Assembly: GCA_947364235.1 (NCBI GenBank)
Contig: CANARY010000001.1
Location: 1-64,000, forward strand
Source of the DNA: an uncultured Candidatus Melainabacteria bacterium
GTDB taxonomy: Bacteria; Cyanobacteriota; Vampirovibrionia; Gastranaerophilales; Gastranaerophilaceae
Direction of reading: 5' to 3'
DNA length: 64,000 nt
Under the pieces are notes generated by a model. That model was not told where the DNA came from and made no database searches. It was given only the letters and a program-made list of their open reading frames with translations. Of this stretch, positions 43,589-59,911 are shown one piece after another. How positions within the stretch are numbered: position 1 is the stretch's first letter; each line of letters starts with the position of its first letter. The position numbers and the translations under genes were made by a program.

Positions 43589-43617
43589 TTGATACATTTA
43601 CAAAAATATGTTACAAT
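43589..43617 (+). promoter_or_regulatory. Promoter of micropeptide RNA locus 1
   Basis: TTGATA (43589-43594), 17-base spacer, TACAAT (43612-43617) with an extended TG one base ahead (TGTTACAAT). The start would be near 43624, about 7 bases before the 5' arm of the structured RNA. Confidence 0.7.
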
Positions 43618-43623
43618 TAAGTC

Positions 43624-43829
43624 CTGAACTTTAAAAAGAGAATACAGGCTAAAGATTTTTAATTAACATTTCGCTGATTTCTAACAAGAAAGGAGGTGAA
43701 TATGCAATTAGAAATCAATGCAAGAGAATTAGCATTATTAATAATACTAATTCTCGAACTCAAAGTCCTATTTAGTTAGGGCTGCGGGTATGGGTAGTTG
43801 CAATACCCATGCCTGTACTCTCATTTTAA
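43624..43829 (+). ncRNA. Structured mRNA locus 1: closing arms around a hydrophobic micro-ORF
   Basis: The 5' arm (43631-43649, TTAAAAAGAGAATACAGGC) and the reverse complement of the 3' arm (43811-43829) agree at 17 of 19 positions. Inside lie a strong ribosome-binding site AAAGGAGGTGAAT, a 25-codon ORF, and a hairpin in which ATGGGTA (near 43789) pairs with TACCCAT (43804-43810). The 3' arm continues into T4. The whole could fold end to end and hide or time translation of the peptide. Alternatives are a regulatory leader for the peptidase gene at 43861. See the matching locus at 59496-59751. Confidence 0.6.
43702..43779 (+). CDS. Micropeptide 1, hydrophobic, type I toxin-like
   Basis: 25 residues, starting MQLEINARELALLIILILEL and ending KVLFS. 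One hydrophobic helix with a charged N-terminal lead could span or lie on a membrane. AAAGGAGG ends six bases before the ATG, among the best ribosome-binding sites in the window. The core RELALLIILI resembles KELALMIITV of the peptide at 59591. Its own promoter at 43589 and enclosing complementary arms support a real expressed unit. Confidence 0.6.
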   Translation: MQLEINARELALLIILILELKVLFS

Positions 43830-43860
43830 CCCATTTTCAAAATTTTTCAAGAGTACAAAA

Positions 43861-58892: not shown

Positions 58893-59099
58893 TCACCAAT
58901 TACTCAAAGTATTTTTACACACACAATTATTGTTAAAGATTTTTTTTACCGATTTTTGAATAAGACATAAAAGTGCAACATCGTCATTCGCTATCTCCAT
59001 AATATCAATCAAAGCATCCACCACAGCAATCATTTCTAATAAATCCCCATTTGCAGAAGTCAAAATATTAAGTAATTTATTACAAGTTTCTTCGTTCAT
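58893..59099 (-). CDS. Small hypothetical protein B
   Basis: About 68 residues starting MNEETCNKLLNILTSA. I choose ATG 59099 because AGGAGGTTTT lies directly upstream. The longer frame to 59186 has no such signal. Acidic and helical, with Cys residues near both ends. Divergent from the HTH gene at 59232; possibly a two-gene unit with protein A under that regulator. Confidence 0.55.
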   Translation of the reverse strand: MNEETCNKLLNILTSANGDLLEMIAVVDALIDIMEIANDDVALLCLIQKSVKKIFNNNCVCKNTLSNW

Positions 59100-59231
59100 A
59101 AAACCTCCTTTTACAAATTTTACCTTTTTCGGCAACTTTTTACTTTTAACTGCAAATATTGTATATCTTTTTGCATTTTTTGTCAACTTTTTACCAAAAT
59201 TGTATAATTATAGCTAATAAAGGAAAAATTT

Positions 59232-59435
59232 ATGGGTATTAGAGAAGATATAAAAATGCTGCTGGCAAAACGAGCAATGACAATGACAGAACTTGCAACG
59301 CAATTGTCAACAGATGAAGAAAAAGTTACTGTACAGAGCATATCGAAAAAACTTTCTAAAAAGACTATCAAATTTGAAGAAGTCAGAAAAATTCTGGATG
59401 TTCTTGGCTACGAAATAGAATACAAAGAAAAATAG
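59232..59435 (+). CDS. Small HTH protein (XRE/phage-repressor-like)
   Basis: 67 residues: IREDIKMLLAKRAMTMTELA then TVQSISKKLSKKTIKFEEV. This is a helix-turn-helix of the Cro/CI type with an extra loop between helices. Probably binds DNA in the 130-base space shared with proteins A and B on the other strand. AAAGGAAAAATTT precedes the ATG. Confidence 0.65.
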   Translation: MGIREDIKMLLAKRAMTMTELATQLSTDEEKVTVQSISKKLSKKTIKFEEVRKILDVLGYEIEYKEK

Positions 59436-59461: not shown

Positions 59462-59489
59462 TTTACTCCGGAAAATATATTAATATAAA
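59462..59489 (+). promoter_or_regulatory. Promoter of micropeptide RNA locus 2
   Basis: TTTACT (59462-59467), 16 bases, TATAAA (59484-59489). Start near 59496, about 7 bases before the 5' arm, the same offset as at locus 1. Confidence 0.5.
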
Positions 59490-59495
59490 TCCATT

Positions 59496-59751
59496 AACAA
59501 TTAAAATATGCAATCGGGCACTCCCGGATTCTTTACTTTCTAAGCACAGACTGAAAATCGGACAATACTTAGAGAAAGGAGGATTTGCATATGATTATAG
59601 AATTAATGCTAATCTTATTTATTTTGCAGCAATGCAAATACAAAGAACTAGCACTAATGATAATCACAGTGCTAGTTTTATTCCAATAAAACTACCGGGA
59701 GTTAAAATTTAGGTTAATGACTAGTTAACCTAATGCCCGATTGCATATTTT
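59496..59751 (+). ncRNA. Structured mRNA locus 2: 18-bp closing arms around a hydrophobic micro-ORF
   Basis: AAAATATGCAATCGGGCA (59503-59520) and its exact reverse complement (59734-59751) close the locus. A second stem, CTCCCGG (59521-59527) with CCGGGAG (59695-59701), stacks inside it. Hairpins follow: AGGTTAA/TTAACCT (59711-59731) before the 3' arm, and AACTAGCACT/AGTGCTAGTT (59646-59677) in the ORF. CTTTCTAAG upstream can pair with CTTAGAGAAAG overlapping the ribosome-binding site. The 3' arm runs into T5. The architecture parallels locus 1 at 43624. Confidence 0.65.
59591..59689 (+). CDS. Micropeptide 2, hydrophobic, type I toxin-like
   Basis: 32 residues: MIIELMLILFILQQCKYKEL followed by ALMIITVLVLFQ. 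Two hydrophobic stretches are joined by a basic turn. The second half (KELALMIITV) resembles the core of micropeptide 1. AAAGGAGG lies eight bases before the ATG. The ORF is enclosed by the long complementary arms of the RNA at 59496-59751. A longer ORF in another frame over this region (59455-59712) has no matching signals. Confidence 0.6.
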   Translation: MIIELMLILFILQQCKYKELALMIITVLVLFQ

Positions 59752-59803
59752 TATTATAAACGATTTCCGGCATTTTGCAAGTGTACATTATTCATAGCCG
59801 GCA

Positions 59804-59888
59804 AAAACCTGCCGGTTTACATCCCCCCTTTTATAACATTCTTACCGGTCGGGATAAAACCTACCGGTTTACACTTACCCCCTTTTAC
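59804..59888. repeat. Tandem palindromic motifs upstream of the histidine kinase
   Basis: AAAACCTGCCGGTTTACA (from 59804) and AAAACCTACCGGTTTACA (from 59856) are each nearly palindromic around CCGG. Each is followed by a C-run and TTTTA. A half site CTTACCGGT lies between (59841). Spacing of 52 bases is about five helical turns. Likely binding sites of a dimeric regulator. Confidence 0.5.
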
Positions 59889-59911
59889 ATTTACCCCTTT
59901 TCTGCTATCAT
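59884..59911 (+). promoter_or_regulatory. Promoter giving a leaderless histidine-kinase mRNA
   Basis: TTTACA (59884-59889), 16 bases, TATCAT (59906-59911) with extended TG (TGCTATCAT). Start about 59918, at the ATG itself. No Shine-Dalgarno is visible. Confidence 0.55.

What the first reader, a model, noticed from the sequence alone, without database searches (positions are those of the whole stretch)
59462..59751. Second locus of the same design with an 18-bp perfect closing stem (locus 2)
Here the arms are an exact 18-bp inverted repeat 213 bases apart, with a 7-bp stem stacked inside and two more hairpins. A 32-codon ORF has the same AAAGGAGG signal, and an upstream segment can pair over the ribosome-binding site. 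Peptide cores match locus 1 (KELALMIITV versus RELALLIILI), while arm sequences do not. Conserved architecture with different arm sequence argues for selection on RNA structure, so these two may be members of an undescribed micropeptide-RNA family.
Basis: partly seen in the sequence, partly recalled or inferred. Interest (0 to 1): 0.85.

Follow-up and report, generated by a model that had tools for sequence, protein, structure and literature searches.

The report
Type I toxin–antitoxin-like module, Gastranaerophilales
A tiny membrane-type peptide gene, folded into an elaborate self-locking messenger RNA and faced by its own conserved antisense promoter, looks like one member of two undescribed families of 'poison plus antisense-RNA antidote' genes in gut bacteria related to cyanobacteria; toxicity has not been tested.

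Summary
In detail: an exact 18-bp inverted repeat (59503-59520/59734-59751), stacked inner stem, AAAGGAGG and a 32-codon hydrophobic ORF. The predicted RNA folds 10.7 SD below shuffled sequence. Locus 2 belongs to a family of 11 loci in the genus plus one in a sister genus. Locus 1 belongs to a second family (60 unique loci; seven hits in this genome, 14 genera of one bacterial family). The host is a Candidatus Gastranaerophilales (Melainabacteria) MAG. Structure-preserving double changes are far above controls in both families. It fires back into the 3' arm. The in-ORF hairpin, read antisense, ends in a U-rich run like a terminator. Best explanation: type I toxin-antitoxin-like modules (hydrophobic peptide mRNA with masked ribosome site, plus a cis antisense RNA of about 110 nt). 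No known toxin or Rfam family matches, and no transposon hallmark was found. Not shown: transcription, toxicity, neutralisation. Folding does not support the hok/aapA step in which 3' trimming alone opens the ribosome site.

The parts
59476..59486 (+). Putative -10 region of the sense (peptide mRNA) promoter, TATATTAATAT; no consensus -35 found here
   Evidence: TATATTAAAAT-like motif conserved upstream of the 5' arm across family 2; site scan. Inferred.
59503..59520 (+). 5' arm of the closing stem (long-distance interaction)
   Evidence: Exact complement of 59734-59751; compensatory changes in the family.
59521..59527 (+). 5' strand of the stacked inner stem, CTCCCGG
   Evidence: Pairs with 59695-59701; six of eight pairs of this helix have double changes.
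59536..59578 (+). Hairpin whose 3' strand covers the first bases of the Shine-Dalgarno; loop with a conserved ACTNAAAAT motif
   Evidence: fold; helix 4, five of eight pairs with double changes.
59575..59582 (+). Shine-Dalgarno AAAGGAGG
   Evidence: conserved.
59591..59689 (+). 32-aa hydrophobic peptide ORF, putative toxin
   Evidence: homologues; 31-33 aa with SD in 11 loci.
59646..59677 (-). In-ORF hairpin AACTAGCACT/AGTGCTAGTT; read antisense it is followed by U-rich CUUUGUAUUU (59645-59636), a terminator-like end for the antisense RNA
   Evidence: covariation.
59695..59701 (+). 3' strand of the inner stem, CCGGGAG
59709..59733 (+). 3' UTR hairpin TTAGGTTAA/TTAACCTAA
   Evidence: seven of eight pairs with double changes.
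59734..59751 (+). 3' arm of the closing stem, followed by a T-run
59753..59780 (-). Antisense promoter: -35 TTGCAA (59780-59775), 16-bp spacer, -10 TATAAT (59758-59753)
   Evidence: strict match in 11/11 family members.
59636..59746 (-). Predicted antisense RNA of about 110 nt; its first 12 or so bases repeat the mRNA 5' arm
   Evidence: Inferred from promoter and terminator-like hairpin; transcript not observed.
43589..43617 (+). Locus 1 sense promoter TTGATA-17-TACAAT
43638..43820 (+). Locus 1 structured mRNA core, from 5' arm GAGAATACAGGC to 3' arm GCCTGTACTC
   Evidence: family covariation.
43702..43779 (+). Locus 1 25-aa peptide ORF (SD 43689-43696)
43823..43850 (-). Locus 1 antisense promoter TTGAAA-16-TAAAAT
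   Evidence: strict match in 58/60 family members.

Best explanation
Locus 2 is a chromosomal type I toxin-antitoxin-like module. A sense promoter makes an mRNA of about 270 nt for a 32-aa hydrophobic, probably membrane-acting peptide. The mRNA folds so that its 5' and 3' ends pair, and local hairpins hide the ribosome-binding site and start codon, so the primary transcript is stable and poorly translated. From a promoter just past the 3' arm a cis antisense RNA of about 110 nt starts inside the 3' arm, crosses the 3' UTR and ends at the hairpin in the ORF. It pairs with the 3' half of the mRNA and triggers decay (RNase III) and/or keeps translation off. When the antisense RNA is lost, processed or refolded mRNA is translated and the peptide damages the membrane. 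Shown by sequence and comparative genomics: peptide ORF, RNA structure under selection, conserved antisense promoter. Inferred: both transcripts, antisense 3' end, masking in vivo, duplex decay, toxicity.
For: Antisense promoter TTGNAN-16/17-TA[TA]AAT past the 3' arm in 11/11 and 58/60 members, against means of 0 and 0.12 per shuffled set and 1.2% of 327 control gene 3' ends. Antisense U-rich stretch after the in-ORF hairpin in both families: 6.6 and 6.8 T per 12, against 3.5 and 2.3 on the sense side. Covariation. In the family-1 ORF hairpin, residue 17 follows synonymous codon choice in codons 9-10: GAACTA with Val, GAATTA with Ile, GAGCTA with Ala, GAGTTA with Thr. Peptide under selection: codon second positions T in 55/55 at three unpaired loop codons while first and third positions vary; SD and ATG retained; hydrophobic fraction 0.68-0.73. 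Up to seven hits per genome, tandem arrays and copies with in-frame stops, as in multicopy type I loci. Start codon mostly paired in predicted full-length RNA.
Against: No transcript, toxicity or neutralisation data. Folding does not show that removing the 3' arm opens the ribosome site (start codon unpaired 0.09 to 0.10 in family 2, 0.11 to 0.10 in family 1); 5' trimming opens it only in family 1. pN/pS is only modestly low (0.53-0.61), and in family 1 one alternative and one antisense frame score similarly, so coding evidence rests on SD, length and hydrophobic pattern. The antisense terminator stem is A+T-rich, and its U-run coincides with Lys/Glu codons. No consensus -35 for the sense promoter of locus 2.
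Confidence: 0.8

Rival explanations
1. A regulatory micropeptide or small membrane protein (not a toxin) whose expression is tuned by a structured mRNA and an antisense RNA.
For: All sequence evidence is equally compatible; toxicity is untested. Peptides have little charge, and family 1 lacks the cationic tail of some toxins.
Against: Copy number varies widely and positions are not conserved, tandem arrays and copies with in-frame stops occur, and the peptide is absent from most genomes even in the genus (family 2: 12 of 65 genomes matched). That is typical of TA loci, not of housekeeping regulators.
Confidence: 0.13
2. A miniature transposable element (MITE) whose terminal inverted repeats are the arms and which happens to contain an ORF.
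For: Inverted repeats at the ends; family-1 arms are similar at many unrelated sites.
Against: No target-site duplications: longest direct repeat between flanks averages 6.9 against 6.5 nt for mismatched flank pairs, outliers of 15 and 18 nt in two cases. Arms change together and in L059 are rewritten yet still pair. Internal helices covary and the ORF reads as coding.
Confidence: 0.02
3. A minus-strand structured small RNA is the product and the plus-strand ORF is incidental.
For: The antisense promoter is the best-conserved promoter; the in-ORF hairpin covaries.
Against: Perfect SD at fixed spacing, ATG and stop are kept across 71 loci; family-2 coding indels are multiples of three; unpaired loop codons keep T at position 2. 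A helix hiding the start of translation makes sense only if the plus strand is translated.
Confidence: 0.04
4. Leader peptide or attenuator of the downstream histidine kinase gene (59918).
For: The ORF lies about 230 nt upstream of the kinase on the same strand.
Against: Neighbouring genes differ at every unrelated family-2 locus, and the kinase orthologues inspected in the genus have no such element upstream.
Confidence: 0.01

Closest known systems
aapA/IsoA (Helicobacter pylori type I TA; PMC6733600)
   Same: Small peptide of about 30 aa, multicopy on the chromosome, mRNA with 5'-3' long-distance interaction, local hairpins that mask the ribosome site from upstream and downstream sequence, cis antisense RNA.
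   Different: In aapA3 the antisense -10 box lies inside the ORF; here the promoter is beyond the mRNA 3' arm. No detectable peptide family match; predicted 3' truncation does not open the ribosome site here.
bsrG/SR4, txpA/RatA, yonT/SR6 (Bacillus subtilis; PMC6562991)
   Same: [quoted passage not shown] long complementary stretch (about 110 nt here); RBS hairpin.
   Different: No match to any toxin family in Pfam or NCBIfam; here a terminal 5'-3' closing stem is added, so the antisense RNA's 5' end repeats the mRNA 5' arm.
hok/sok (PMC8167048)
   Same: 5'-3' fold-back of the mRNA thought to keep it inert; hydrophobic toxin.
   Different: Sok acts on the leader/mok region; the antisense RNA here faces the 3' half. 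No HOK_GEF Pfam match; no mok-like coupled ORF was looked for.
msoT1/msoA1 of Microcystis aeruginosa (PMC12390103)
   Same: Candidate type I TA in the same phylum-level group; antisense RNA (56/83 nt) binds the 3' end of the coding region and the 3' UTR.
   Different: 63-aa toxin with two predicted helices, pI 11.2; no long-distance closing stem reported in the parts read; peptides here are 23-33 aa.

Membership tests
Type I toxin-antitoxin (general) | Small hydrophobic peptide ORF with its own ribosome-binding site | tested here: met
Type I toxin-antitoxin (general) | Antisense RNA gene overlapping the toxin mRNA | tested here: inconclusive
   Promoter strongly conserved and terminator-like hairpin; the transcript itself not testable here
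Type I toxin-antitoxin (general) | Ribosome-binding site hidden in the primary transcript | tested here: met
   In silico only: start codon unpaired about 0.1 in both families; masking helices covary
Type I toxin-antitoxin (general) | Peptide is toxic and the RNA neutralises it | not testable with these tools
   No experiment possible
aapA/IsoA | 5'-3' long-distance interaction in the toxin mRNA | tested here: met
aapA/IsoA | Antisense promoter within the toxin ORF | tested here: not met
   Promoter lies beyond the 3' arm; aapA3 layout from PMC6733600
aapA/IsoA | 3' trimming alone exposes the ribosome site | tested here: not met
   In silico accessibility unchanged on truncation
hok/sok | HOK_GEF-type toxin | tested here: not met
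   No Pfam or NCBIfam match
[quoted passage not shown]
   Position of promoter and hairpin fits; the transcript itself is inferred
bsrG/SR4-like | Known Bacillus toxin peptide family | tested here: not met
   No Pfam or NCBIfam match
Known RNA family (Rfam 15) | Score at or above gathering threshold | tested here: not met
MITE / transposable element | Target-site duplications and invariant terminal repeats | tested here: not met

The most novel reading that the evidence does not exclude
Two unrecognised, multicopy type I toxin-antitoxin families in the Gastranaerophilales, with an arrangement I know of in no described family: a 5'-3' closed toxin mRNA combined with an antisense RNA that starts inside the 3' arm, so its 5' end copies the mRNA's own 5' arm and can invade the closing stem, and that ends at a hairpin inside the toxin reading frame. 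That hairpin is so constrained that one amino acid of the toxin (Val/Ile/Ala/Thr) is dictated by base pairing with synonymous sites elsewhere in the ORF.
Probability: 0.6. Interest if true: 0.75.

Novelty: new variant of a known kind. Interest (0 to 1): 0.66.

Why it matters
A 2025 paper states that type I toxin-antitoxin systems were known only from Proteobacteria, Firmicutes and Tenericutes, and offers one candidate from Cyanobacteria (PMC12390103). Here are two families with more than 70 loci in the non-photosynthetic sister group, with far stronger comparative support than a single-genome prediction. They give a ready covariation data set for how toxin mRNAs are locked and how antisense RNAs recognise them, and a clear case of RNA structure dictating amino-acid identity. 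They also show how to find such loci in uncultured lineages: antisense promoter plus closing stem plus tiny hydrophobic ORF.

Tried and rejected
MITE reading: rejected (plus rewritten arms in L059). Leader peptide of the kinase: rejected by context. Known toxin, defence or phage families: no match in Pfam, NCBIfam, PADLOC, PHROGs, phages or plasmids. IMG/VR scan with the family-2 alignment found nothing; the single IMG/VR pattern hit for family 1 (L118) and a Flavobacteriales hit (L101) are chance, being starts of longer proteins. The genome-contig scan with the peptide alignment gave nothing because the peptide is too short; a DNA pattern worked and named the host group. The hok/aapA-style activation step was tested by folding and not supported. 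Covariance model not built: alignments of 308-360 columns were judged too long for the calibration limit. dN/dS-type test is weak because the RNA is constrained. No structure prediction was run on so short a peptide.

Full report
What is there. At 59503-59520 and 59734-59751 lies an exact 18-bp inverted repeat; inside it CTCCCGG pairs with CCGGGAG, and there are hairpins at 59536-59578, 59646-59677 and 59709-59733. A 32-codon ORF (59591-59689) follows AAAGGAGG. As RNA, 59480-59771 folds at -93 kcal/mol, z = -10.7. Locus 1 (43625-43835) has the same layout, z = -9.6.

Relatives. The 32-aa peptide finds homologues in seven other places in same-genus genomes; a profile extends this to 11 full-length loci in the genus and one in a sister genus, L059. 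I call this family 2. Locus 1 belongs to a different, larger family 1: in this genome five copies were read in full and seven match the profile, with 33 of 63 genus genomes positive. A wider profile gives 42 of 383 genomes of the order in 14 genera, all of one bacterial family, and nothing outside it in the rest of the phylum sample. A DNA pattern in GTDB contigs returned records titled Candidatus Gastranaerophilales or Melainabacteria, mostly rumen MAGs. The two peptide profiles align only over the KELAL stretch.

RNA structure is selected. In family 1 (48 sequences) 95.4% of cells pair, 22 of 39 pairs show double changes and 160 cells do (shuffle mean 49.7; slid controls at most 23). In family 2 (11 sequences) 91.0% pair, 27 of 48 pairs show double changes and 65 cells do (shuffle mean 22.3; slid controls at most 21). 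Caveats: shuffles ignore relatedness, and the structures came from these alignments. In family 2 the longest complementary run between own arms averages 11.3 nt against 7.7 for arms exchanged between members. The sister-genus locus L059 has different arms (ATACAAAGGGCA with TGCCCTTTGTAT) that still pair over 13 nt.

A hairpin inside the ORF dictates an amino acid. In family 1, codons 8-11 pair with codons 15-18 (66 cells with double changes, shuffle mean 23.6). In 58 of 60 copies residue 17 follows the synonymous choice in Glu9-Leu10: GAACTA with GTT/GTC (Val, 45), GAATTA with ATT (Ile, 6), GAGCTA with GCT (Ala, 6), GAGTTA with ACT (Thr, 1). The unpaired loop codons keep T at codon position 2 in 55 of 55 sequences at three codons while positions 1 and 3 vary, the mark of selection for hydrophobic residues, hence of translation.

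The missing half: an antisense promoter. Directly beyond the 3' arm, on the minus strand, every copy has a sigma-70-type promoter. With TTGNAN-16/17-TA[TA]AAT the counts are 11/11 and 58/60; dinucleotide shuffles give means of 0 and 0.12 per set, and 1.2% of 327 downstream regions of ordinary ORFs match. The copies are related, so these are not independent trials, but the spacers and the flanks outside the element differ. At locus 2 it is TTGCAA (59780-59775), 16 bp, TATAAT (59758-59753). Transcription would start near 59746, inside the 3' arm, so the antisense RNA begins with the same bases as the mRNA 5' arm. Read antisense, the in-ORF hairpin is followed by a U-rich stretch (6.6-6.8 T in 12, against 2.3-3.5 on the sense side), giving a predicted antisense RNA of about 110 nt. 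The U-run coincides with Lys/Glu codons, so this end is an inference.

How it probably works. [quoted passage not shown] In B. subtilis txpA/RatA, bsrG/SR4 and yonT/SR6 the antisense RNA pairs with the toxin mRNA at the 3' ends and RNase III cleaves the duplex; SR4 binding also extends SD masking (PMC6562991). In aapA/IsoA and hok the 5'-3' fold-back keeps the full-length mRNA inert until the 3' end is trimmed (PMC6733600, PMC8167048). I tested that last step by folding: truncating the 3' arm leaves start-codon accessibility unchanged (0.09 to 0.10 in family 2, 0.11 to 0.10 in family 1). Trimming the 5' leader raises it in family 1 from 0.10 to about 0.5 but not in family 2. So the closing stem more likely gives stability and governs access of the antisense RNA, and the activating event is open.

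What it is not. No Pfam, NCBIfam, PADLOC or PHROGs match, no Rfam match above threshold, none in phage (family-2 peptide) or plasmid (family-1 peptide) records. No target-site duplications. Neighbours differ at every unrelated family-2 locus, and the downstream kinase occurs without such an element in the relatives inspected.

Novelty. Literature searches in the held library found no type I system in Gastranaerophilales or Melainabacteria; the nearest is one candidate locus in Microcystis (PMC12390103). The library is open-access only, so absence is not proof. Functionally this works like a type I module; membership stays provisional because toxicity and the antisense transcript are untested.

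Noticed in passing
59232-59435 (+): A 67-aa helix-turn-helix-like ORF (weak DUF6471/HTH_3) lies about 150 nt upstream of the peptide ORF. A similar small ORF sits at the same distance and orientation upstream of the family-2 copy in L008, and an HTH protein precedes those in L004 and L013; it might be a linked regulator or chance.
   Followed up: partly
59780-59900: Short repeats built on TTTACATTTACCCC and CTGCCGGTTTACA lie between the module and the kinase gene; ACATTTACCCC repeats also occur upstream of the kinase orthologue in L121.
   Followed up: no
L032, L013, L048, L063, L068 (locus coordinates): Family-1 modules occur as tandem arrays of two or three with a repeat unit of about 225-235 nt, each with its own antisense promoter.
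   Followed up: partly
G076:C45:89-154, G009:C11:60893-60955, G085:C8:138581-138646: Family-1 copies with an in-frame stop in the match, possibly decayed modules.
   Followed up: no
59545-59566 and family-2 alignment A4 columns 79-104: The loop of the hairpin just before the Shine-Dalgarno is strongly conserved (AGCACAGACTNAAAATNGG) though mostly unpaired; it could be a contact site for the antisense RNA or a protein. Unexplained.
   Followed up: no
Family-1 leaders, e.g. L063 and L036: Two near-identical upstream segments (GATTTTAAC and CATTTTAACTATC) are both complementary to the start of the ORF, as if two hairpins formed one after the other during transcription, like the metastable hairpins of aapA3.
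   Followed up: partly
58893-59186 (-): Another AAAGGAGG (59111-59104, minus strand) precedes a small unannotated ORF starting MNEETCNKLLNILTSANGD; not related to the peptide families by inspection.
   Followed up: no
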